From assembly GCF_000003815.2 (NCBI RefSeq), contig NC_049979.1, forward strand, positions 11,130,471-11,194,470: a stretch of DNA of 64,000 nt. The letters are read 5' to 3'. The translations under genes and the position numbers were made by a program. This DNA is from Branchiostoma floridae. Lineage: Eukaryota; Chordata; Leptocardii; Amphioxiformes; Branchiostomatidae. Under the pieces are notes generated by a model. That model saw only the letters and a program-made list of their open reading frames with translations, made no database searches and was not told where the DNA came from. Of the stretch, positions 5,301 to 55,560 are shown piece after piece. The first letter of the stretch is position 1. Every line of letters begins with the position of its first letter.

Positions 5301-8300
5301 AATGTACATGTGTCGGTGTTGGTATTTAATGTTAATACCGTAACTCCTGGTTTGAATCTATCGAAGTCAACATCAGCAAAAGACCTCACCCTCCCTGTGT
5401 CGTGTACACCGTGATCTCCTCCGGGATGGCTGTCCCGTTCATCATCATGGTGGTCATGGTAGCAGCCATGGAGGTGATGTTGGGAGGGGTGTAGGCCGGG
5501 TTAGGTACGGTCTGCTCCACGATCTGTGAGTTATACTGTAAAACACACGTGGGAGATTACAAACCTCCAATGACTCGTATCATTAATCACAGAATACAAC
5601 ATAACGAAAACACTGCAACGTAGCAAAACAAAGTGAAACAGAAAACATAACACTGTAAAAGCAAGCACATCGCAATCACTACGACGGGCAAGTCATATCA
5701 TATAACGTTACAGCACTAACGCCGAAGAAGGTATTCACTTCTGCATAAACGAGCGGCGAGTCTAGTGTTAGGAGGTTCCAGGGCTATATATTGAAATTAT
5801 AACGAAGACTTACCGACTGAAAGCAGGCTTGTGCAATGTTGTCCGGAAACATGTTCCTGAGTCAGGAATAAAGCAAACTATCTAAGATTTCACCGACAAG
5901 GCAACATGCACCACGTATAGGTATTGCACGTTGAACTTTTTAGAATAGACGATCGGTACCGGTAGTAAGCCCAGAGAGTAAGTTTGCCCAATTGTAAATT
6001 ATTCAAAACCTTTACAACATCGATGGACAAAGCAGCTTCGTATGGTGTGACGGGTGGATTGCCAGTGGCTAATTAAAACAAGAAATCTTTTAAGAAAAGC
6101 TGTGCATTGCCGCGTATTTTATGACTGAACTGCTGAGAGCGACACCTAGCTTCTTCAGTAGGAAATGCAGCAAAAGGGGATATTGGAAATTTACCTCATT
6201 ATCATAATTTATGTCACATGAATTATTGGCACATTAAACAGGTTTTGTAAAACTTTTTGACCCACAATGAATATGCATTATTTTTCATTACAAAATAAGT
6301 TCCTTCTGATGCAATTTGTGATATATCTTTATATAAACATGGTGAGTTAAAGCGTAGATTTATTACGCTGGACCACATACAGTAACATGCGTCTAGAAGA
6401 GCGTTTTAATACTCGCCTGGAATGTACCATTGTTTAACTAAGCCATGAAACTCGGCCGCGAATAGCCGCGAGTGAGCGAGCGAGCGATTAGCCGCGAGCG
6501 AGCGTGGTCCAGTGGATTGGCTTGCCTCCCTAATGTTTGTGTACCCTTAGGGGTCAACTACATATGAGTATGGTCATTGTATCGAATGGTCATTACTAAT
6601 TTTGAACTGTCACCTTCCAGCAAAAAGAAGGGCCTTTGGAAGGGGCTTTGGAAGGGCTGGGTTAAAAGGTCCGTCCATTGATCCAACCATGGAAGAAAGC
6701 TGGCATAAGGCATTGCCGCTGGCGCGGCAATGCAAAAAAAACAGAACGGACCATAAATTACCAAGCTACCATACGGAGAACAGTAGAGAAGGTAATCCAA
6801 TGCTACCTGATGAGGTCCAGGAAGGAATCTGCAGCGCTGACCCTGCGGGAACTACCCGCTCTTGCAATGGCGTCCGGGTCGCCCTGTCCAGGGTGGATGC
6901 TCACCACTAGGATGATGCCTAAATAAGACACACACACACATATAAAATAATTTTTTAATGGTGATTGCACTTTTACAGAAAGATCACCTCGACATAGTCA
7001 TTCAGGTATCATCGTAATCAACTACGTTCATGACTGTGTTGATAAGCAGCTTGTATCATATAAATAATGATGTTTATCTAAAGATTCATTCCCAAAGCCC
7101 AAATGCAAGTGTGCAGGCGATGTGATAACGTAAAATGGTAGAAGAAAAGTCTCATATTTCTACGCAAATTACTGGGCAAAGGCAGCTTTGTTATCTCCTT
7201 TGTAGCAGTGATTAGTGACTAGTAGCCTCACACTGTATGATTTTGATTTTAGTAAAACTGTGATTTTTTAGGTTTTCTAGATACACACCTATGATGACAG
7301 CGATCAAAGTGGTGCCGGCATAGTACGCCACTGCCCGACCGCCTACTCTGCCGGAGGTCTTGGCGTCCAGAGCGGCCAGGGCAGAGATTATACTGCAGAG
7401 GATGAGCGGCAGGATCATGCACTTCAGCATCCTGATGAACAGCTCCCCCGGGAAGGAGAAGTAGGCGATGTTCTGTAAATATCACATACCATGAACAACA
7501 TTATGATTAATACTAGATTTCTCCCAACACACAGAATTGACTCACGAATTTTTCCCGATCTTCTGGTCTTCTTCAAGATTGCTCATAAGAATGTGGAAGG
7601 TTCTGAGCAATCTGGTCCTCACTTATCATGAACACGGCCATAGGCTGATCGAGTTGGTATCCGGTAAGTTCAATCTTTGTGTATAACAGTATTCTACGTT
7701 TTCCATACCGACAAAGACAAACTTTCATGTTGGTAAAAGATGAACATATATCATCAATGAGACAGCGGCCTTGCCCTCACATAATCTCCAAGCAGAAGTA
7801 AAAAGGCGAAATCGATTCGAAACGTTTCTCACGGTCCATGTACTGCCGAGCAGTGGGCCTCTCTACTAGTTTAAGAAACGATACGAGGGTGAGTCAGAAA
7901 GTAATGCAAGTGGTTTCATAACAGAGTCGTTCTTTGATCGAATGAGTTGAAATTTGGCACAAAGGTTAAGACATATCTTCTCTTGAGATTGAAATATCAA
8001 AATGTGTTGCTCATTACTTTATGAGTGACTGAGCTGCTTTCAAGGTGACCACACCCTTGGTATCCCGTCAGAAGAAAAGAGAGGTCCAATTAACGTACAA
8101 TTAAGAATATCCCTAAACCAATGTTTGCTATTGTAGGAGACTAAGCCTGCACATGTAATAAGCTGCATTTCTGTATAAGCCACACGCTTAATTTTAACTC
8201 TGAAATCTGAGCAGTTTTTCTTTTTTCGTTGCTGGTGTAGAGTGAGGTATACGCGGTCTTCAGGGTCATGAGATCTGCGGTGCTATTATTAAAACTTTCC

Positions 8301-43622: not shown

Positions 43623-44597
43623 TACATACATACATACATACATACATACATACATACACATACAGAGTCACAGACATTGTCCTAGATTTCCTTACATCAA
43701 CCCATTTTTGAGGAAATAGTATGGGTTTCAATGGGTTGGTCGCCAGAGATCAAAGTCACTTTTGACCCAAATTTTTTCCACCTACTTGATCTTAGAAATA
43801 ACTACTGCAATGTTTTTCTGGATACAGGTGGGGATATTTCTAAGATCAACCCAGGACAAGGAAGTCAACTGGTTATCAGAATATTACTGCTGTAGTATAA
43901 TACAACTGGAACCAAGCCCAGAGTCAATGTCCAGTTGGCAATGGAATAGTTTTTTTATTTTGAAAAATTTTGAAAAAAAAAGTACCCCCACAGCTAGGAA
44001 ACTCTTCTCTGAAGTTGCCCACTAACACCCCCCCCCACACCCAACCATCGGTTGTGTCGATTGCAGTGTTATCACACGAAACATCTTATCCCGTTGCTCA
44101 GGGGGATAGCGTTGTCTGTTCGATTGCCGGAGGGTCTTTTCTCACTCAATCATCCGATGACGTCAATGCGTGAAATGATACACCGACTGTGACGTCGCTA
44201 ATAGAAACGTGAGATCTATACCTGTCCAACGCATGCGTATGTCATACTTTTTGTTCCCTAAAGCTGCCCGGTCGGGCCCCGGTTTGGAAATGTGACGTTA
44301 AGAGGCCATGTTGATACCATTCTCATGCACGACCCAATGTCGTCCATTTCAAGTGTGTATTGTTTTTTAAAAAGTTCTTATGGGAATGAAGCATGACTTA
44401 AGGATGATCCCCAGTCCTGTCTACATCGAAACATGTTTTGCCAAGCAACAGAAGAGAATAAGCATTTAAAACTCTTTAGAGGAATTTTCCTTTTTCTGAA
44501 TTGCACGAAAGCTAATTTTCTAATTGGGTGACCTCGCAATTGCGCTACGTGCAGGTATGCACGTCTACGTCGTGAAAGCCCTAGCGGACAGTTGCTA
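42991..44597. other. Intergenic stretch with microsatellite
   Basis: Holds a (CA)n tract followed by a (CATA)n tract at about 43579-43660. No gene-like frame with motif or splice support was found. Confidence 0.5.
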
Positions 44598-44746
44598 AAC
44601 AAGAAATCTTTTTAAAAAAGCTGTGCCTTGCCGCGTGGTAGGAATATCGTCAGGAAAAAGTGGGTCGGCACTTCAAGCCCGGCAAGGCAAAATGCTGTGC
44701 GTTGGCGTGCAGTAGGGATAATTTGCTTGTCTGCTAAATACGTATT
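44598..44746. repeat. Repeat end with inverted CCTTGCCG motif and a piece matching the Helitron gene
   Basis: 44598-44637 matches the SLC1-intron repeat at 6075-6113. GTGCCTTGCCGCG (44624-44636) is mirrored by CCGGCAAGGCAAAA (about 44688-44701), a possible hairpin with a 50-base loop. Bases 44707-44743 match 52048-52084, inside the Helitron reading frame, at 34 of 37 positions. Confidence 0.55.
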
Positions 44747-44931
44747 ATGGTAGCGAAAGCCTTGTATTGATCTGTTAATCTTGTTGTAAATATATGTAGG
44801 TGTCTTAAAAAATGATGTTGCATTTTCTGACGTTCGACAACTAATAAATATGAAATAATTAGACCTTATTTCAAGGATATACAGTAACAATTTTAATTTA
44901 TTTCATTTCTGTGAAAGGATAGCTGAGTGAG

Positions 44932-45850
44932 TACTGTATGGTTAGCAGGAGTTCAGGTACTTTGGTCAGCTGAGAGGGTACAGCATGCACAGCAGGCGTC
45001 CAGGTATTGTGGCCAGATGAGTGGGTACTGCATGCACAGCAGGAGTCCAGGTATTGTGGCCAGCTGAGTTAGTACCGCATACACGGCAGGAGTCCAGGTA
45101 TTGTGGTCAGCTGAGTGGGTATTGCATGCACAGCAGGAGTACAGGTACTGTGGTCAGCTGAGTGGGTACTGCATGCACAGCAGGAGTCCAGGTACTGTGG
45201 TCAGCTGAGTTAGTACCGCATACACGGCAGGAGTCCAGGTATTGTGGTCAGCTGAATGGGTACCGTATGCACAGCAGGAGTCCAGGTACTGTGGTCAGCT
45301 GAGTGGGTACTGCATGCATGGCTGGAGTCCAGGTACTGTGGTCAGCTGAGTGGGTAATGTATGTATGGCAGGAGTCCAGGTACTGTGGTCAGCTGAGTGG
45401 GTATTGCATGCATGGCTGCAGTCCAGGTACTGTGGTCAGCTGAGTGGGTACTGCATGCGTGGCTGGAGTCCAGGTACTGTGGTCAGCTGAGTGGGTATTG
45501 CATGCATGGCTGGAGTCCAGGTACTGTGGTCAGCTGAGTGGGTACTGCATGCACAGCTAGAGTCCAGGTACTGCGGTCAGCTGAGTGGGTACTGCATGCA
45601 CAGCAGGAGTCCAGGTACTGCAGTCAGCTGAGTGGGTACTGCATGCACAGCAGGAGTCCAGGTACTGTGGTGAGCTGAGTGGGTACTGCATGCACAGCTA
45701 AAGTCCAGGTACTGCGGTCAGCTGAGTGGGTACTGCATGCACAGCAGGAGTCCAGGTACTGTGGTGAGGTGAGTGGGTACTGCCTGCACAATTTGAGGTA
45801 CTGTGGTAAGTTGAGAGGGTACTATATGAATGACTGCAGTTCAGGTATAT
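44932..45850. repeat. 47-bp minisatellite on the 3' side of the Helitron gene
   Basis: About 19 copies of a 47-base unit containing TACTGCATGCACAGCAGGAG, TCCAGGTACTG and GTCAGCTGAGTGGG. Spacing is exactly 47 over most of the array; the last copies at the right are diverged. No coding role. Confidence 0.95.
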
Positions 45851-46523
45851 GTACTATGGTAAGATTGAACAATTAGTTAAAAATAAATTGTCTTTTGACA
45901 AATTTGAATTGAACAACTTATGTGAAACGTGTTGTTTATCAGATGGCATAGCTTTGTATATTGCAATATTTGATGTAGTTCATCAGAGCAGTGTGCATTT
46001 GTGCTAATCACAATGAAGTAAGGAAGGTGTGTTTGTCTTTACACAAATGACATTTGTAAACAATGCAAAGAATGGTTGAAGTGAAATCGTGTCAATTCTA
46101 TTCTAAAAGGTAATGCAGTGTTTGTATATTCTTTACATGCATAGTTTGCTTGGCTTCGTATGTATAGGGCTATTCAGACGTGATGTAAATTTTCTTAACA
46201 AACAAAAGGGTTTTCATATGGATGTGGGTCATAGTGACGACAATGGTCTGCCATGCTGCATTACCTATTTGTATTTCATTGCATCATAGCTGAAGGTAAC
46301 ACAGCCTTTTTCAGTCTTAAACTTTAATGGCAAATTTTCAGGTATTCTCCACAGTCAATAGTGGGTATTTGAACAGATCAGAAGGTATACAGTTTATTGG
46401 TATGTAAATGTTTTAAATGTGCAGTCGACAATGGTTGCAATTATGGTATTGAGTAAATAAGCTCTGTATTTGTTCAGTAGGTAATTTATGTTTACTGTCA
46501 TGATAATATATATAGTAGCATTG
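45851..46523. other. Spacer between minisatellite and Helitron stop codon
   Basis: AT-rich. A minus-strand AATAAA (plus 46393-46398) lies about 130 bases after the Helitron stop and is a likely poly(A) signal. No other feature. Confidence 0.5.
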
Positions 46524-49500
46524 TCATGTACTGTCTGGTTGTTGACTTGGTGTAATACTTTGAGTCAATCTTGTCATCTCTCTCAAGACAGATTGAAACG
46601 CTGTTATCCTCTTTGGTTCAAACTCTAGTATGGCCAAACCTTCAAGTGAGGTAACTCTGCTTAGAGCAACATATACCATTCCAGGGCTAAATACACTTGG
46701 TCCTATATCAAGTACAACTTTTGACAATGATAGGCCTTGTACTTTGTGGCAAGTTGATGCGTAAGAAAGTTGGAGTGGAAACTGTGTCCGGGTGAAAACA
46801 GTGCTGTAGCGTGCAAAGAATTTTGCTGTGATTGCTGAGATAAGAATAGCATTGTTCTTGGTAGGGTCTTGTAACATTTGACCAACCCTGGGATTGTCAA
46901 ACTTGACGTAGACTCCTGTAACAGTTGGCACATTTGAGTTGTATTGTTGGTCATTTTCAGAGTCTTGTGATAGGAAGTCCTCCACTGTACCCTGTGCACC
47001 ATTTACAAGTCCATCCTCGCTCAGAATGTTTCTTAGTAGCATGACTCGACAACCTTTAGCAAGGCGAAGTTCTTTCTCAAGTCCTGCTGTTTCACTGGTG
47101 TCTTCTGATATTAGATCTTGTTCAGGTATGTTGTTTGCATTGACAGGACCATCCGTCATTTCATCTCTTGCTGTCAGTACATGTATCTGAGTATCTGTTT
47201 GAGCATATAGTCTTTGCAGTTCTTGCATGTTATGCTCTATGGCCTTTTTCCTTGTTGGGAAAATGTGAAGAGCCATGGAAAAGGCAGATTGTTCAATCTC
47301 TGCTCTTCTTTTGATGCAAGTTGAAAGGAGGGCAATATCTGCATTGGTTGGCAGTCCAACTCGTACTCTGTTAAGGAGTTCTGTAAACTCTTTGTCAGTT
47401 TTTTGTCTGTGATTGACAGTTAAGAATAATGGCTTGAATAGTGATCTCCACAAGTGAGTGAAAGGTTCTTGTTGGTTTAGTGAATCTTCGAATATGAATT
47501 TTCCGAAGACCGGTTTGAGCTGGTAGAAATCACCAAAAGCTATGATGTTGAGGTTCCCAAAGTAGCTGTGTTGGTCAGCTGTAGTGTCTTTGATCTCTGA
47601 TAGGCGGAGGTGAATGTGTTCCAGTCTGACATTGCTGATCATGCTTATTTCATCAATGAAAACTGTGTGTACATTGCTGAATTTGCGTCGAAGTTGTGAC
47701 AGTTTCTCAGCACTGAGTGGTAGGTACTGGGTTTTACCTCTTCGGCTATGGTCAACAGGCAGTGATAGAGCTGAATGTACTGTGAAGCCACCAATGTTGT
47801 AGGCAGCGACACCTGTTGGTGCAGTGAGCATTACAGGAGATGTTGGGCAGTTTGATGTACGGATCAAGTACTCATTCAAAACTTTTATTAGAAAGCTTTT
47901 GCCACAGCCTGCTCCTCCCGTCACGAAGAGTCTCAACGGTTGTGGTTTTGGAGAGGCTCGGTCTGCTTGGTGTCTGTTCATCAGTAAAAAGTGTTCTTTC
48001 ACTGTGTTAAACACGTGCTGTTGGTCATGTGACATGTTATTGAGTGCGTCAAAGAATGCATCATCAGCCATTGTGTAGCGAGATACAGTATTCCATGCAA
48101 GTGAATCATCATGTAACATTGTGAGGTTTTCTGAAGATATCATGTCAATACTATTAGTTTGAGCAACAGATGCTGCTGCTTGTTCTGCATTTTGTGCTGT
48201 CCATTGTGCATCAAGATGAAGTCCTTCAGTGTTAAAGTCATGTTCAGTTTGCAACTGTTGGTGAGTCACATTGGGGGCAAGTGTGGTAGCAATAGATGTT
48301 AGATCATCTGACAGCAGGCGTACTTGCATGATAGCTTGTTCTATATCTGATGTGAAATGAAAATGCTGTGCAAGACTATTGTCAAATTGATCCTTCTTAG
48401 CAGAGAAAGCATCTTGAGCACAAGCATATTCAGCAAGGATGTCGTTTTCATTTCTCCATGGGTAGTACATGTACAAGAGACCGTAGAAATAGTCATCTCC
48501 ATTTCCAGAGGATAGTTTTGAACTTCTAACACATGCAAGCTTTTGACGTTTCTTTATCCATCTGTCACATTGTTGTAACTTGATAGTTTGAGAAGCTTCT
48601 GATGGCTCAATGGATGTAATGGAGTATGTTGCGGCAAAGGTGAATAATGACATTGTATCCCAGGGATTACCATGTGGTCTCATTGCATAGTATTGAGCTG
48701 TTCCCTTTGTGAAAATGTCAGATGATGAATCATCAAGTTTGTCGAGGTCATCTTTGGGTTTGAGCAGACGCATTCTTTTGTGTGGTGGTTTGGCATTGAT
48801 TGACACTGTTTGTCTCGATGATTGTATCAGTTGCAGGTTTGCAAGTCTGTAGCCAACTTCTTGTCCTCCAACTAGGCGGTGGCTGAGTACAGTGTTACCA
48901 ATCTGGGCTAAACGTGCTCTTTTTGTACTGTTAGGTGGTAGATGTGACAGACCAGCATAGATAGCTGTTTGAAGATTATCAGGCTCAGCTTTTGAGATGT
49001 ACATACATGCATAGTAAGCAGCACCATACTTTGACCCAACCATTTGTATGTCCATGTTAGACTGCATATGTAAGAGCAATGTAGGGCTATATGCATTGAT
49101 CCAGATGTCCTGTTGTGTTCGTTTTGTAACATAAAATTGTGCGCTGCGATTAGCATCAACATCTAGCCTGAGTCGTGTGGTCTGTGACACTTCTCGAGGG
49201 AAGTGAAATCGACACTTTGTTCGTCCCTTCTCACATGTTCTTGTGTGATGATGCCGTTGGTATTTGGACACTAGTTCATGTAAGAGAGAGTTTTCATCAT
49301 CAGGTAGCTGTGTGGACACATATTTGTCAATGAATTCAGGTGCTCTTTGCCTTCCTTCTATGGTATCAAGGTTGGGGGCATTCTCAACCCAGAACATACA
49401 GTGCAAGTGAGGAGAACCTCTTAACTGAAATTCGACACGAATCCAGTGGTCCGTAATCACACCAATAGGATGTTGCGGACTGTTCAATATGAAGCGTAGC

Positions 49501-52391
49501 AGTGCATCAGTGCGCCGGTTAAAGTGTATGGCACACATGACAGGGTCTGATCTCATCAGGTTCCATTTGTCTTGCTGAGGTAATGCTTTAGCTTCCTCAT
49601 ATGTCAGATCAGGATTGAGAGACATAAACAGCTCTGGCCAGTTCAAGTCATTTGCTGACACAGTGAGAAACCAAGTTGGTGGGCCAATTGTGTTGATTTT
49701 TGCTAGTAGGTTAAGCAGTTGGTCCTTAAAGTATGCTGCTGTTCCACGGATGTTCTTCATGAAAGTGTATGATGTGCTTTCAACATCTTCATGAATATTC
49801 TGACGCAGATCACCTGCTGTCAGAGGTTGTGGTGAAGATTGTGAGGTATCATTACCTTGCTTTTGCATTCTACACACAATTGATATCTGACTGTACAATT
49901 TCTTGATTTCATATGAGTTCAAAGCAAAGAAGAGCCAAGGGATATTTTTCCTCCAGATATCATTGATATTAAGTAGTCGTGACTGGAAGTACTGTAAGTC
50001 TGTCATAGGTATTTCTCTCATCTGTTGGAAACCATTACAACCATATGGATACAGCTGAGGGAAGCAGTGTTCCTCGAGGTCTTTCTCCTTAAAAATACTT
50101 TGTGGTGCTGATGTTTCACGAGGGAGAGATACTGATGGTACAGTGTCTGTTGCACTCTGCAACAGAGATTGTAAGGGAATATTTGGATTGATGTAGTTGC
50201 ATGGAAAAGCAGACAGCTCTGTGACATTAGAAGATCCATTTGATTGATGGATTTCATCATAGTTGGCAAGATTTGAATGGAATTCGCATGATGTTTCCTT
50301 CCAATCTTCAAAGGAAGCTATGTTTACATCTGAGTAAAGACTATTGTTAGTGATCAGCCATGTTAGAGCTTCATGCATGTGAGTATATCGCACAATGTAT
50401 TGTGGATCATTTCTTTGTGTTCTATCGTTAGTTTCGGAGGGATGTACTATTACGATTCCTGATGTGTTTTGACAGCGTGGTAAGAGATTGCAAGATGTTT
50501 CAATGTTGGTAGAGAAACTTATGGCTTGGCCTTGTTCACCATATTGTCCACCTGGTAGGATAACAAGCTTTACAAATGTGTACTTCAGGCTGACAAGTCT
50601 TGTCTCCATTCTAGTAAGCTGTTTTATACATGATGGGATATCACCTGGGTCCATATTGTTAGTCCAAGCATTGGGTATTGGGTTTTGTCTTTCAATAGCA
50701 GTTGAACACTTTGAACACAGATGGCATTGATCAGAGTTATTTTGATGTGCGTACTTCATAGTATCTGTTACAGAAATGTTGCAGGCTCTTACTTGCTCAT
50801 GAAATAAGAATTTTCTACACAGAATGCAATAGTATTTTGGTTGCTGCTGTATGTAGCAATGGAATGCTGGGAACTCTGATTTGTACCCTTCGTTAGTATG
50901 CTCAGTGTGACCTGTGCTATGTTCTTTCACATACTTGTTAGCAGCTGTATTCCTTTGGTAGTCACGGCACTTCTTTAGACGTTCAGCTCTATGCTGAGAA
51001 GTTTCATTAGCTGCTTTGTTTCTGTAGTTTAATCTTTGTTTTGCAAGTCTTTTTAACCTTTCGTCAGATGTTTCATTTTGTTTCCTGGCTTTGTTACATT
51101 CTCTTCGCTTAGCAAGTCTGTCTGCTTTTTTATCAGCTGTCTCTCTTTGTTTCTCGGCTTTGTAGCATTCTCTTTGCTTAGCAAGTATGTCTGCTTTTTT
51201 ATCAGCTGTCTCTCTTTGTTTCCTGGCTTTGTAGCATTCTCTTCGCTTAGCAAGTCTGTCTGCTTTTTTATCAGCTGTCTCTCTTTCTTTCCTGGCTTTG
51301 TAGCATTCTCTCCGCTTAGCAAGTCTGTCTGCTTTTTTATCAGTTGTTTGTGGTTTCTTAGTTTTAAAATGTGTGCATTGCTTTGCAATTCCGTCAGCAT
51401 TTTGTTCAGCTGTTTCTGTTGCTATGTTGGGTGTGTACTGTGTTCTTTGGTTTGCATAGCTGTCTGCATTTTGGTTAGTTGTTTGCTTTGTGTCACTTAC
51501 TTGTTGATACATGAACATGTCTTGTTTCTTTGCACTCAATTTGTGTTTCGCAGAATTATGTTGACCCTTTGAAGTCCTTGTATAAAAAGAAGATAGGTTT
51601 AGAGGTTGTAAGGTGCCTTCAATCAGTACCGATTTAGATGGTGGTACTAATGAGTTAACTTTCTGAGCCTGTAGAAAGCTGTGTGATCCCATTGGCTCAT
51701 TGTTGTCAGTCAGTGTCAAATAGCGTACATCCAGTTCCGTAACATCACTTGTCAATTCAATGTTTTCTGATTGCACTGCTACAAGCTCAAAGTTGCATGT
51801 TAGACTTGGTTTCCAATTAAGTGTTTGTAAGAATTGACAAAGGTTAGTAATCGTCATGTGCCTACTTAAAGCAGATGAGCCATTATCATCAGGCAGTGCT
51901 GTTGTTTGACTTCTGGCATGTGAATCATAAACAAAATAATTGTTACCAGTATGCAGTAAGGCTACTGTGGAACCACTTGATCCAGATGCTGTTATGAGCA
52001 AACATGTGTCAGATATAGCAAATGCTTCTTCTAGGGCTGTCTGCAATGTGTAGTAGGGATAATATGCTTGTCTGCTAAACACGTCTCCAGTATATCGCTC
52101 TTTGATTGTTATGTGCAAAGTGTTGTTTCCAATCTGCCAATAATTGGGCAGATCATCAACTGATAGGTAAGATACAGTAGGCGGTAGAGATGGTTTTATG
52201 CGGTTGTAAAGTGCATCACCTTCAAACAGTACAGTATCAAGATCTGTGGATGTCCAGGAAGTTGCTTGTTTGTTAGCAGAGTGATAAAGGATAGCTATCA
52301 AAGAATTTGCAGTACATTGTTTACCTCTACTAGTTTCATTGAAAATGTTGTTGCCTTGGTGGTAGTTTCCTGACAGTGTAGCTTCACACAT
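46524..52391 (-). CDS. Intact Helitron replicase-helicase with N-terminal cysteine-protease-like region
   Basis: A single uninterrupted frame of 1955 codons, no introns. Domains in order. (1) Residues about 20-165: a papain-fold/USP-like candidate with QCTANS (Cys26) and YDSHAR (Asp156, His158), spaced as in tegument-type deubiquitinases. (2) About 330-480: tandem basic repeats of 23 residues (ETADKKADRLAKRRECYKAR + KQR), STPR-type, probably DNA binding. (3) About 520-570: CxxC pairs (YYCILCRK, CHLCSKC) and then a DUF6570-like stretch (VILPGGQYGEQGQ). (4) Helitron-like Rep with HUH-type HLH (GSPHLHCMFW, about 995) and tyrosine motif YYACMYISK (about 1125). (5) Pif1-family superfamily 1 helicase: GGAGCGKS (about 1490), FIDEISMIS, FGDFYQLKPV, HKVQGLSLSK, VYVALSRV. 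These motifs look complete, so the enzyme could be active in rolling-circle transposition. Element ends are not certain. Confidence 0.95.
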   Translation of the reverse strand: MCEATLSGNYHQGNNIFNETSRGKQCTANSLIAILYHSANKQATSWTSTDLDTVLFEGDALYNRIKPSLPPTVSYLSVDDLPNYWQIGNNTLHITIKERYTGDVFSRQAYYPYYTLQTALEEAFAISDTCLLITASGSSGSTVALLHTGNNYFVYDSHARSQTTALPDDNGSSALSRHMTITNLCQFLQTLNWKPSLTCNFELVAVQSENIELTSDVTELDVRYLTLTDNNEPMGSHSFLQAQKVNSLVPPSKSVLIEGTLQPLNLSSFYTRTSKGQHNSAKHKLSAKKQDMFMYQQVSDTKQTTNQNADSYANQRTQYTPNIATETAEQNADGIAKQCTHFKTKKPQTTDKKADRLAKRRECYKARKERETADKKADRLAKRRECYKARKQRETADKKADILAKQRECYKAEKQRETADKKADRLAKRRECNKARKQNETSDERLKRLAKQRLNYRNKAANETSQHRAERLKKCRDYQRNTAANKYVKEHSTGHTEHTNEGYKSEFPAFHCYIQQQPKYYCILCRKFLFHEQVRACNISVTDTMKYAHQNNSDQCHLCSKCSTAIERQNPIPNAWTNNMDPGDIPSCIKQLTRMETRLVSLKYTFVKLVILPGGQYGEQGQAISFSTNIETSCNLLPRCQNTSGIVIVHPSETNDRTQRNDPQYIVRYTHMHEALTWLITNNSLYSDVNIASFEDWKETSCEFHSNLANYDEIHQSNGSSNVTELSAFPCNYINPNIPLQSLLQSATDTVPSVSLPRETSAPQSIFKEKDLEEHCFPQLYPYGCNGFQQMREIPMTDLQYFQSRLLNINDIWRKNIPWLFFALNSYEIKKLYSQISIVCRMQKQGNDTSQSSPQPLTAGDLRQNIHEDVESTSYTFMKNIRGTAAYFKDQLLNLLAKINTIGPPTWFLTVSANDLNWPELFMSLNPDLTYEEAKALPQQDKWNLMRSDPVMCAIHFNRRTDALLRFILNSPQHPIGVITDHWIRVEFQLRGSPHLHCMFWVENAPNLDTIEGRQRAPEFIDKYVSTQLPDDENSLLHELVSKYQRHHHTRTCEKGRTKCRFHFPREVSQTTRLRLDVDANRSAQFYVTKRTQQDIWINAYSPTLLLHMQSNMDIQMVGSKYGAAYYACMYISKAEPDNLQTAIYAGLSHLPPNSTKRARLAQIGNTVLSHRLVGGQEVGYRLANLQLIQSSRQTVSINAKPPHKRMRLLKPKDDLDKLDDSSSDIFTKGTAQYYAMRPHGNPWDTMSLFTFAATYSITSIEPSEASQTIKLQQCDRWIKKRQKLACVRSSKLSSGNGDDYFYGLLYMYYPWRNENDILAEYACAQDAFSAKKDQFDNSLAQHFHFTSDIEQAIMQVRLLSDDLTSIATTLAPNVTHQQLQTEHDFNTEGLHLDAQWTAQNAEQAAASVAQTNSIDMISSENLTMLHDDSLAWNTVSRYTMADDAFFDALNNMSHDQQHVFNTVKEHFLLMNRHQADRASPKPQPLRLFVTGGAGCGKSFLIKVLNEYLIRTSNCPTSPVMLTAPTGVAAYNIGGFTVHSALSLPVDHSRRGKTQYLPLSAEKLSQLRRKFSNVHTVFIDEISMISNVRLEHIHLRLSEIKDTTADQHSYFGNLNIIAFGDFYQLKPVFGKFIFEDSLNQQEPFTHLWRSLFKPLFLTVNHRQKTDKEFTELLNRVRVGLPTNADIALLSTCIKRRAEIEQSAFSMALHIFPTRKKAIEHNMQELQRLYAQTDTQIHVLTARDEMTDGPVNANNIPEQDLISEDTSETAGLEKELRLAKGCRVMLLRNILSEDGLVNGAQGTVEDFLSQDSENDQQYNSNVPTVTGVYVKFDNPRVGQMLQDPTKNNAILISAITAKFFARYSTVFTRTQFPLQLSYASTCHKVQGLSLSKVVLDIGPSVFSPGMVYVALSRVTSLEGLAILEFEPKRITAFQSVLREMTRLTQSITPSQQPDST

Positions 52392-52479
52392 TATGGATAA
52401 GTTGAATCAGTAACTTATACTTTAGAAATGTTCACACATTATGGATAAGTTGAATCAGTAACTTATACTTTAGAAATGT
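52383..52479 (-). repeat. 48-bp tandem duplication covering the Helitron start codon
   Basis: Two copies of a 48-base unit (plus-strand TTCACACATTATGG... at 52383 and 52431). The second copy lies upstream of the gene and repeats its start (minus-strand ATG at 52437-52439), creating a five-codon upstream reading frame, MCEHF then TAA. Confidence 0.85.
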
Positions 52480-52498
52480 ACAATGTATGTAGATTTCG

Positions 52499-52975
52499 AG
52501 TGTGCGTATAAGTGCAGTTTGCACGGTGAGTGCGAGAGCACAGAGGCAGGGGTTGGACTTGTAATTGGATTGAGTGCGAATGCACAGTCTGCGCACAGAG
52601 GCAGGGGTTGGACTTGTAATTGGATTGAGTGCGAATGCACAGTCTGCACGGTGGCAGGGGTTGAACTTGTTGTTGTATTGAGTGCGAATGCACAGTCTGC
52701 ACGGTGGCAGGGGTTGAACTTGTTGTTGTATTGAGTGCGAATGCACAGTCTGCACGGTGGCAGGGGTTGAACTTGTTGTTGTATTGAGTGCGAATGCACA
52801 GTCTGCACGGTGGCAGGGGTTGAACTTATTGTTGTATTGAGTGCGAATGCACAGTCTGCACAGTGGCAGAGGTTGAACTTGTTGTATTGAGTGCGAATGC
52901 ACAGTCTGCACGGTGGCAGGGGTTGGAAGATTGAGTGCAAAAGCACAGTCTGCACGATGGCAAGGATTGGTAATA
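52499..52975. repeat. 53-bp minisatellite on the 5' side of the Helitron gene
   Basis: About nine copies of a unit containing GAGTGCGAATGCACAGTCTG, CACGGTGGCAGGGG and TTGAACTTGTTGTTG. Unit starts include 52572, 52627, 52680, 52733, 52786, 52839, 52889 and 52933, so the period is 53 in the core with shorter or longer variants at the edges. Each unit includes the small palindrome GTGCGAATGCAC. The long frames through it are repeat artefacts. Confidence 0.95.
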
Positions 52976-55375
52976 AGTGGCAGTGATTAGACTTTGTCTA
53001 CTTGATGGCGTATTTCATTCAATATACACTTTGGCTTCAACACGGTCTGGTCTGTGCTGTGAAGAAATCTGCAATCGAAGACTGAAAGAGAAGGAAAACA
53101 ATTTCTTGTGTCAACATTAAAACCAACTGAAAGAGCATATGCATATTTAATTGATAGAATACTAGTGGTTTCTAAACATATGACAATGGAGGTTTAAATA
53201 GACCTTGACATGAATAAAGGGTAGCCAATTTCATGGCATTCTTCAATATTTGTTGTAGAGAGGATCTGCTCTCCACCGACAGCATAAATCTTTTTTAAAA
53301 ATGGGACCAAAATGAAGGCAATACGATAGAAACAGTCATGAGAAGACACTTAAAGATGGCAAACGTTAGTTGGTAAGCAAGAAAGTAAGACACGAATGTG
53401 CTCAATCATGTGAAAATAGAATTATCCGAAAAGAGGGAGGGGGGCTGTTTTGTTTCACTTCGTCTTTTCGTGTTTATGAAATTATGTTCACGGCCGGACA
53501 AACCAGCGTCATTTATTACACTTGTTAATAATTTGTTAACCTACAATGTCAGGGAAATACCACCCAGGTAACAAAATTGTCCGACAAATTATGCACAAAG
53601 AAAACTGATCTAACGGCAAGGAACCTTAATCCGACGGATTTGAGTATATTCAACACTGAACCATGAATAAACAAGCGGGCTTTTGCGCATTCCGGAAACT
53701 GTTTAGTGCACTGTTTACTATGTTTCCCCGGCCCTTAGTACACGTGCATTGGTCTCCCACTTTGCGTGGTTTGTAGAAAATATAACACTTCAAAGAGAGT
53801 GTAACTGATAGCAAGTCCCTTGGGATTCTATTCCCAGTGGAACTTTAATCCGTGACAATAATATAACAAGGCTGTTTATCAATGGATTTCATATTTACAA
53901 CGACATTAATTTGTATCAATCGGCAGCCACTTACTCGAGGTTTAAATGGCAAATCGGCATGTCGGTAAACTGCCGGTATCGCGATCAAAACTTGGCCCGA
54001 AAACACATCAACCAGCGGCAAATCAATTCTGCTGTTGCACTACACGGTTATGATGTTCTATGAAATTTTTCATCCATTGTTTGGTAAGCAAATGGCGGTA
54101 AATACGTTGTTTTGCGAATGGCTCCCCAAAAATATACCTGCAAAACACACTACAAACTCCCTACGGTACGTCCCCATGTCGGGGCCAGTTGGTTTCGCCG
54201 GTAAGATTCGTCTTGCTGACTTTGGATGTGAGCACTTTGACAATAGGGGTGAAGGGACGTACTTTCAAAATGGCGCATGTTCGGAAGGCCGCAGAATTGA
54301 CGTAACAAAGCCTGCACTGTATTTGAAACAGGGACTCTTCAAGGCATGTTGGTTGTCTTGAATGGACAGTTTATTAACTTTTTGCTATATTTACTGTGAT
54401 GATGAAGGAGTAATGTGAGGATGAAAAGTAGAAATCCTTGAAATTACGATACCTGCCCCCCTCCCACGGCTTGAATTACGAGATGTAAACATACCGGAAG
54501 ATGGATTAACTTGTCGCTGCAGCGTGCGATCTTTGTGAGCTCAATCTTACAAGGTTTTAAGTCGTATACCTAACTGGTTTTGTAAAGCACTCAAAAGAAT
54601 TTGCATACCGGAGCTAGTTTTTGACTGACAGATGGGTTCTGAAAATCACGGTTTAACCTCCCGTCACGGATAATAACGTTCCTTGCCGTTAGCTACGGCC
54701 TCACAAAGTCTGATAAAACAATGATTATTTTAGGAATCACTACGATAAAACTACAAGTTTGACATCTATATTAGCCAGAATATTATCTTACATATTCCAA
54801 GGCGTTACATTTTATTTCTGAATTAGCGATAACTTTGAAAGAAATGATGTTATAAAGACTAGGAAATTTATCTACGTACAAACCTGCTGATGCAAAATTG
54901 GACTCACACCGGAGTTTCTTAGGCATGCGTTCTGAAATGCGGCGCATATAGAATATGCATTGCAAACAAACACTTATTGCTTGCCGCAGGGCTAGGGTTG
55001 ATGTTTGAAATATAAAAAAAATGATCCTTAATATTATCTATTGCGACTTCTCGTGTGACGTTTTGTGCTGGCGCTCTCCTAAACTCACGTTAGCGTTTTG
55101 CTGCGGTCTCGGAAGGTCTCCCATGCGATCTGCAACGTTTTGATGACGTCATGGCTACTTATATATTCACATACAATTTATTAGCCTGATTCGAGAATAA
55201 TTTCATCTTTATGAATAGCTAATGCATTTTTTTTGCGAGATAATACACTTGATTTCATGCCACTCAAAATGAATTTAGAATTTTACCATACAAACGCTTC
55301 ATTCATTAAATGTAACCAAATATTAAATGCTTTTAGAACCGACCGCAAACAGAAACAAATACGTAAAACGGACGG
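52976..55375. other. Non-coding stretch upstream of the Helitron gene
   Basis: No gene-like frame. A perfect 15-bp inverted pair CTAACGGCAAGGAAC (53610-53624) / GTTCCTTGCCGTTAG (54678-54692) brackets about 1.1 kb; similarity extends a further 10-15 bases inward on each side (TTAATCCGACGG versus TTATTATCCGTGACGG). This could be a separate MITE or part of the 5' region of the Helitron. Confidence 0.5.
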
Positions 55376-55560
55376 TTTAAAATTCAACGAGGATGTACCA
55401 TTGTCTGCCTAAGCCGTCAAACTTGTCCATGAGAAAGGCGATTTGGAAGGGCCTTTGAAAGGGTCTTTGGAAGAGCAAGGTTAACAGGTCCGTCCATTGA
55501 TCCATGGAAAAGACCTGGCGTAAAGCCTTGCCTGGCGGCAAGGCAAAAAAACACCAGGAA
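55376..55560. mobile_element. Repeat end with terminal hairpin, relative of 6403-6745
   Basis: Shares ATGTACCATTGT, AAGGGCCTTTG and AGGTCCGTCCATTGATCCA with the SLC1-intron repeat. It ends in GCCTTGCC, loop TGGC, GGCAAGGC and an A-run. Compared with the other copy (GCATTGCC / GGCAATGC), both stem arms changed together (A-T to C-G), so the hairpin itself seems conserved. Confidence 0.6.

What the first reader, a model, noticed from the sequence alone, without database searches (positions are those of the whole stretch)
46524..52391. Intact Helitron gene with a protease-like N-terminus and STPR repeats
Seen: one open frame of 1955 codons with all Rep and Pif1 helicase motifs, no stops or frameshifts. 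Established: Helentron-type Helitrons can carry accessory cysteine proteases of the OTU family. Inference: this copy instead has a USP/tegument-type arrangement (Gln25-Cys26 ... Asp156-Ser-His158), followed by 23-residue STPR-type repeats. A deubiquitinase-like domain fused to a rolling-circle transposase would suggest that the element manipulates host ubiquitin signalling. The open frame implies recent activity.
Basis: partly seen in the sequence, partly recalled or inferred. Interest (0 to 1): 0.78.

Follow-up and report, generated by a model that had tools for sequence, protein, structure and literature searches.

The report
Rolling-circle transposon carrying a herpesvirus-like deubiquitinase
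This is a young jumping DNA element whose transposase begins with a predicted ubiquitin-cutting enzyme of a kind already known from herpesviruses and similar elements; in this genome the enzyme also sits in dozens of related elements, most of which seem to have lost the transposase.

Summary
The 1955-codon frame is real, on the minus strand (52391..46524). Its first ~208 residues match Pfam Herpes_teg_N above cut-off and a solved zebrafish Helitron deubiquitinase, PDB 8ADD (E 5.5e-11). So the protease is neither USP nor OTU but a VTD (viral tegument-like deubiquitinase), published in 2022 and already known from Helitrons (PMC9741609). Gln12, Cys26, Asp156 and His158 are invariant in three subfamilies; dN/dS is 0.26-0.36. 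Comparison of copies gives the element: 44597-55550, with Helitron2-type ends. No endonuclease was found, whereas the paper describes endonuclease-bearing Helentrons. Unexpected: a second subfamily, B, has 62 loci with an uninterrupted VTD, but only two helicases were found downstream of one. A 60-base VTD stretch is identical in 69 of 69 copies with 3 mismatches allowed. VTD-bearing, transposase-less derivatives thus seem to have spread very recently. Whether the enzyme helps them is open: 35 of 100 listed B 5' ends lack the VTD marks. Verdict: known kind, modest variant.

The parts
44597..55550 (-). whole element, 10,954 bp, Helitron2-type ends (the T-run base at the 5' limit is ambiguous by about 1)
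   Evidence: 5' and 3' limits from comparison with other copies of the subfamily; the window copy and C5 share 18 further bases beyond this 3' limit
55525..55550 (-). 5' end: T-run plus perfect 8-bp hairpin (55525-55544)
   Evidence: fold z -3.5, 0 of 200 shuffles as good
44624..44634 (-). 3' subterminal inverted repeat, 11 bases complementary to the 5' hairpin arm
   Evidence: subfamily B has a different 10-base pair of arms at the same place
44608..44620 (-). 3' terminal stem-loop, followed by ...CTTGTTT
   Evidence: the 110-base 3' end folds only moderately better than shuffles: z -2.0, 7 of 200 as good
46524..52391 (-). single open frame, 1955 aa
51768..52391 (-). VTD deubiquitinase domain, residues 1-208
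   Evidence: Pfam PF04843 4.6e-9 for the domain alone, PDB 8ADD
52356..52358 (-). Gln12 codon (aligned with a Gln of 8ADD)
52314..52316 (-). catalytic Cys26 codon
51918..51926 (-). Asp156-Ser157-His158 codons (Asp-x-His)
50940..51422 (-). basic 23-residue repeats, about residues 324-484 (69-bp DNA repeats at 51077-51347)
   Evidence: STPR model below cut-off
50319..50684 (-). DUF6570 domain, residues 570-691
49395..49811 (-). Helitron Rep domain, residues 861-999, with H995-L-H997 (label HUH recalled)
46977..47942 (-). Pif1-type helicase, residues 1484-1805 (PIF1 and 2B domains)
   Evidence: GGAGCGKS at 1492
44921..45790 (.). 47-bp minisatellite in the 3' non-coding part
52538..52970 (.). 50-53-bp minisatellite upstream of the gene

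Best explanation
It is an intact Helitron2-type rolling-circle transposon. Its single protein joins a VTD deubiquitinase, basic 23-residue repeats, DUF6570, a Rep nuclease and a Pif1 helicase. Rep would nick at the hairpin ends and the helicase would peel off the strand (known Helitron mechanism, inferred here). The VTD, through Cys26-His158-Asp156, would remove ubiquitin, most likely K48/K63/K11 chains as its measured zebrafish relatives do. That would protect the transposase or nearby replication factors from proteasomal removal during transposition (inferred; the purpose is also only proposed in the literature).
For: Shown: frame; domains; homology to the solved Helitron VTD 8ADD with Gln, Cys and Asp-x-His aligned; triad and Gln12 invariant in three subfamilies, B and C being 64% and 63% identical to the window's VTD; VTD dN/dS 0.36 (0.25-0.55), 0.27 (0.17-0.40), 0.26 (0.17-0.41); 70 of 70 genome-wide Pfam matches have no stop inside the match; hairpin ends, with 5'/3' complementarity kept in subfamily B despite different sequence. 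From a paper: three zebrafish Helitron VTDs cleave ubiquitin substrates (PMC9741609, passages).
Against: The fold was not confirmed by modelling: the single-sequence AlphaFold model failed (pLDDT 32). No activity or expression data. The VTD evolves faster than Rep (dN/dS 0.36 for residues 1-208 against 0.09 for residues 721-1000, window copy against B13). One broken A copy (C8b) has Lys in place of Gln25 and a frameshift in the VTD, and one C copy (L037) is also frame-shifted there. 'No stop inside' says little for B, whose copies are nearly identical by youth. In one search an unrelated fimbrial chain (3f85) also reached E 0.0011, with no single stretch passing, taken as chance. The insertion-site rule was not established.
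Confidence: 0.87

Rival explanations
1. The VTD is a catalytically dead or non-ubiquitin protease domain, kept as a binding module (as in insect iVTD proteins).
For: Inactive VTDs related to Helitron VTDs exist in insects (PMC9741609, section 6); dN/dS is higher than in Rep.
Against: All predicted catalytic residues are invariant in A, B and C; the closest solved relative is reported active.
Confidence: 0.07
2. The domain is a USP- or OTU-type deubiquitinase.
For: General papain-like resemblance; Helentrons often carry OTU (PMC4067079, passages).
Against: No USP or OTU model in the Pfam output up to E 1; Asp-x-His order and 8ADD homology.
Confidence: 0.02
3. About subfamily B only: its transposase-less elements are passengers, deletion derivatives too young to have lost the VTD, moved by Rep/helicase made elsewhere, with no role for their VTD.
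For: Near-zero divergence leaves no time for decay; the VTD lies near the 5' end, so deletions of the 3' part keep it by chance; 35 of 100 listed B 5' ends and 27 of 75 exact 3' ends have no VTD mark.
Against: Among VTD-bearing copies with an exact 3' end there are many different VTD-to-3'-end distances, several of them in several copies, and VTD-bearing copies occur with all three 5'-end haplotypes.
Confidence: 0.75

Closest known systems
VTD-bearing Helitrons of zebrafish (DrT1, DrT2; Erven et al. 2022, PMC9741609; PDB 8ADD)
   Same: VTD in the transposase frame, same catalytic residues, sequence homology 5.5e-11
   Different: The paper describes its VTD Helitrons as carrying a C-terminal AP endonuclease, with two VTDs (DrT1) or an added OTU (DrT2). 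Here there is one N-terminal VTD, and no endonuclease or OTU was found. The paper lists vertebrates, insects, cnidarians and molluscs as hosts of such Helitrons; 'amphioxus' and 'Branchiostoma' have 0 occurrences in its main text.
Helitron2 elements (as summarised in PMC5148889 and PMC4067079, passages)
   Same: Asymmetric/subterminal inverted repeats, hairpins, one Rep/helicase frame without endonuclease
   Different: The passages read here do not mention a VTD
HINE/DINE-1 non-autonomous Helentrons (PMC4067079, passages)
   Same: Subfamily B short forms have defined Helitron2-type ends but no Rep/helicase
   Different: HINEs and DINE-1 are described as lacking coding capacity; the B short forms keep an open VTD frame
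Herpesvirus large tegument protein deubiquitinases (UL36, M48, BPLF1)
   Same: Same Pfam family (PF04843), described as the N-terminal conserved region of the tegument protein
   Different: Compared only through the Pfam model; the host protein and setting differ

Membership tests
VTD deubiquitinase | Significant match to the tegument DUB family | tested here: met
   PF04843 29.9 bits whole protein, cut-off 25; 36.6 bits for the domain alone
VTD deubiquitinase | Catalytic Cys and Asp-x-His order | tested here: met
   Cys26, Asp156, His158 aligned with 8ADD, invariant in A, B, C
VTD deubiquitinase | Papain-like fold | tested here: inconclusive
   Homology to solved 8ADD supports it; own model failed, pLDDT 32
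VTD deubiquitinase | Ubiquitin cleavage | not testable with these tools
   needs biochemistry
Helitron (Rep/helicase) | Rep and Pif1 helicase in one frame | tested here: met
   PF14214 1.2e-25, PF05970 2.1e-24
Helitron2 | Asymmetric inverted repeats and hairpins at the termini | tested here: met
   11-base inverted repeat 5 and 27 bases from the ends, 5' hairpin, weaker 3' stem-loop
Helitron2 | Insertion between T-run and T or C | tested here: inconclusive
   T-run at the 5' limit in 8 of 8 copies printed; no empty site was sought
Helentron | C-terminal AP endonuclease | tested here: not met
   Frame ends after the helicase; no endonuclease model among the hits of the frame nor among those of 30 other frames of 51-184 aa on both strands, none of which reaches a Pfam cut-off
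Canonical Helitron1 | 5'-TC ... CTRR-3' ends | tested here: not met
   Ends TTTTTTGCC ... CTTGTTT
USP | USP-family match | tested here: not met
   None up to E 1 in Pfam
OTU | OTU-family match | tested here: not met
   None up to E 1 in Pfam
STPR repeats | 23-residue repeat matching the Pfam STPR model | tested here: inconclusive
   Period 23 strong, model 17.3 bits, below cut-off 27

The most novel reading that the evidence does not exclude
Subfamily B may be a deubiquitinase-only mobile element: derivatives that shed Rep and helicase again and again but keep the VTD because it raises their own chance of transposition or survival, for example by shielding a borrowed transposase or an ssDNA intermediate from ubiquitin-dependent removal.
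Probability: 0.17. Interest if true: 0.75.

Novelty: new variant of a known kind. Interest (0 to 1): 0.45.

Why it matters
Why transposons carry deubiquitinases is open. Here, very young, nearly identical elements with and without Rep/helicase, and with and without VTD marks, coexist in one genome, which makes the question testable. A VTD in a Helitron without endonuclease also widens the known setting and bears on the published idea that herpesviruses took their tegument enzyme from a Helitron-type transposon (PMC9741609, Discussion).

Tried and rejected
Rejected: USP/OTU identity; Helentron label; giant VTD fusions. One search listed open frames of 1565, 2318, 3640 and 4522 codons behind four B VTDs; the 651-base slices held from these four loci are wholly N, so those lengths mean nothing. 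Other frame lengths and the spans of the long B elements without VTD marks (up to 19 kb) may be affected by such gaps too; not checked.

Led nowhere: single-sequence AlphaFold. The second fold job was not used: the rule of that tool names loci of other fetch tools, and loci of this genome are not on its list. The search for related loci in viral contigs with the VTD found no relative. A 37-base likeness between VTD code and the 3' tail stayed unexplained.

Not claimed: selective retention of the VTD. The marks for it (many VTD-to-3'-end distances, all three 5' haplotypes) are offset by the VTD's place near the 5' end, by the youth of the copies and by the VTD-less ends. The list of distances is conditioned on having a VTD mark, and some differences may come from repeat-length change rather than separate deletions.

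Dropped rows: the dN/dS of C8b against the window is not used, because C8b is frame-shifted in the VTD; L037 is frame-shifted in the VTD and left out; 11 of 111 B 5' ends were not listed and could not be classed.

Literature: (six searches of the held open-access library) listed no paper whose title or abstract start speaks of transposase-less VTD Helitrons or amphioxus VTD Helitrons; subscription papers and preprints are not held. PMC9741609: outline, abstract, passages, section 6 whole, Discussion part 1 of 2. PMC4289320, PMC5148889, PMC4067079: passages only. The other papers: search listing only.

Full report
OBSERVATION. The frame is on the minus strand, 52391 down to 46524: 1955 residues, ATG to stop. 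Pfam gives, above curated cut-offs, Herpes_teg_N (11-163, 29.9 bits against 25), DUF6570 (570-691), Helitron_like_N (861-999), PIF1 (1484-1679), the Pif1 2B domain and overlapping general helicase models. The 23-residue repeats are real by autocorrelation, but the STPR model stays below its cut-off. I scanned 30 other frames of 51-184 aa in and around the element, 20 on the minus strand and 10 on the plus strand. None reaches a Pfam cut-off, and none of the weak hits (best E 0.00098, a zinc-finger model on minisatellite sequence) is an endonuclease, OTU or RPA.

THE PROTEASE. phmmer of residues 1-209 against PDB sequences has one convincing hit, 8ADD, E 5.5e-11; the next is E 0.19. A three-subfamily profile gives 8ADD at 4e-14; the next, a fimbrial chain at 0.0011 with no single stretch passing, is taken as chance. 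8ADD is DrT1-VTD2, the crystal structure of a zebrafish Helitron deubiquitinase (PMC9741609, table passage). Cys26 and Asp156-Ser-His158 align with its Cys and Asp-Ser-His, and Gln12 with a Gln. The paper states that Asp-x-His is invariable in VTDs and gives a mirror image of the usual papain-type site, so this is not a USP arrangement. It reports ubiquitin cleavage by three zebrafish Helitron VTDs, preferring K48 and K63 chains, with K11 for two of them (passages). Function here is inferred from that homology.

THE ELEMENT. The genome holding the window is available (513,431,437 bases; window = C1:11130471-11194470). A 692-base VTD query gave 40 scored matches out of 106 candidates: 7 at 98-100% (subfamily A, the window's) and 33 at 73-74%. 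Comparing A copies fixes the limits at 55550 and 44597: a T-run and perfect 8-bp hairpin at the 5' end, an 11-base inverted repeat 27 bases from the 3' end, a 3' stem-loop and ...CTTGTTT. The 5' hairpin beats 200 of 200 shuffles; the 3' end beats 193 of 200. Subfamily B has a different inverted repeat (10 bases) at the same place, so complementarity is kept while sequence changes. These are Helitron2/Helentron-type ends, not the TC...CTRR of canonical Helitrons (definitions from PMC5148889 and PMC4067079, passages). With no endonuclease found, Helitron2 is the better label. In the paper, VTD-bearing Helitrons carry a C-terminal AP endonuclease, so this is a variant.

INTEGRITY AND SELECTION. 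Of 7 A copies, 2 keep the full frame; they differ at 6 of 5868 bases, 4 residues. The other 5 have a first stop at codon 94 to 1619. The B and C VTDs are 64% and 63% identical to the window's, with the triad and Gln12 invariant (one copy of each subfamily). dN/dS is 0.36, 0.27 and 0.26, bootstrap upper limits 0.55, 0.40 and 0.41: purifying selection, weaker than on Rep (0.09 for residues 721-1000, window copy against B13).

SUBFAMILY B, THE UNEXPECTED PART. Genome-wide, Pfam Herpes_teg_N gives 70 matches (72 candidates, all scored), all over the cut-off, none with a stop inside; the tool's 14 control genomes give none. By position and score I assign 62 to B, 6 to A, 1 to C and 1 to a further type (C5:15.54M, frame 2041 codons). 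Of the 62 B loci, 49 have open frames of 214-566 codons; 6 have 1022 codons, ending just before the H-L-H motif of Rep in the copy printed (B13); 1 has 1985 codons (C18:13.97M, H-L-H motif present in the slice read); 4 have frames that run through N; C279 has 804 and C309 has 845. A short frame alone does not prove that Rep and helicase are gone. The helicase count speaks to that: a 600-base query from the window's helicase gave 17 rows, which I read as 16 places, all candidates scored. Only two, on C18 and C309, lie 4-6 kb downstream of a B VTD on the same strand. Gaps or stronger divergence could hide others.

The short form is 3234 bp. Of the 11 B copies that I read, 3 have it exact over its full length, 2 more have its exact junction, and the other 6 have longer or other forms. 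In 8 of 8 B copies the 621-base VTD is identical to that of copy B14; B12, B13 and B14 are identical to each other there. Counts of patterns: short-form junction, exact, 21; VTD Asp-x-His stretch, exact, 67; VTD Cys stretch, up to 3 mismatches allowed, 69, all with 0. In 62 loci both VTD stretches are at the exact spacing, in 1 they are further apart; 6 loci have only the first and 4 only the second. Of 75 exact 3' ends, 48 have a VTD stretch within 15 kb upstream and 27 do not. Of 111 B 5' ends with up to 2 mismatches, 100 were listed: 56 have both VTD stretches, 65 have either, 35 neither. VTD-bearing copies (both stretches) occur with all three 5' haplotypes: 37 of 53, 13 of 19 and 6 of 28.

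READING. The burst is very young, and most B copies with a VTD appear to lack the transposase. That the VTD is kept by selection is not shown: it sits near the 5' end, the copies have had no time to decay, and about a third of the ends lack it. I keep 'deubiquitinase-only selfish element' as the boldest reading not excluded (0.17).

MECHANISM. Shown: sequence homology, conserved catalytic residues, hairpin ends, very recent multiplication. Inferred from known families: nicking at the ends by Rep, strand displacement by the Pif1 helicase, ubiquitin cleavage by the VTD. Inferred and also only proposed in the literature: protection of proteins needed for transposition from degradation (PMC9741609, Discussion passage).

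NOVELTY. Not seen in the listings of six library searches: a VTD in an endonuclease-less Helitron2, or transposase-less VTD derivatives. Subscription papers and preprints were not searchable.

Noticed in passing
6076-6740 (minus strand): A ~665-bp element with ends like the A element's (81% over 113 bases near the 5' end, 92.5% over the last 40) and no other likeness to it; presumably non-autonomous.
   Followed up: partly
52048-52084 and 44707-44743: 37 bases of VTD coding sequence (about residues 103-115) recur at 92% in the 3' non-coding tail, same orientation.
   Followed up: partly
44579-44596: The two intact copies (window and C5:17.26M) share 18 more bases beyond the 3' limit that two other copies (C2, C18) lack, as if one round of transposition had ended late.
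   Followed up: no
52383-52479: Exact 48-bp tandem duplication spanning the start codon; BLAST offsets suggest that other A copies have one unit.
   Followed up: no
G000, B 5' ends without VTD marks (e.g. C3:7.20M, C6:9.20M, C15:16.97M): In 10 cases the nearest exact B 3' end lies 9-19 kb downstream with no VTD mark between; possibly captured host DNA, possibly assembly gaps or wrong pairing.
   Followed up: no
G000 C33:3843, C2:3200767, C422:39344, C19:5278039: Four helicase copies with no Herpes_teg_N match listed nearby; the first two score the same as the helicase of the 2041-codon element on C5:15.5M, the last two are 95-99% like the window's.
   Followed up: no
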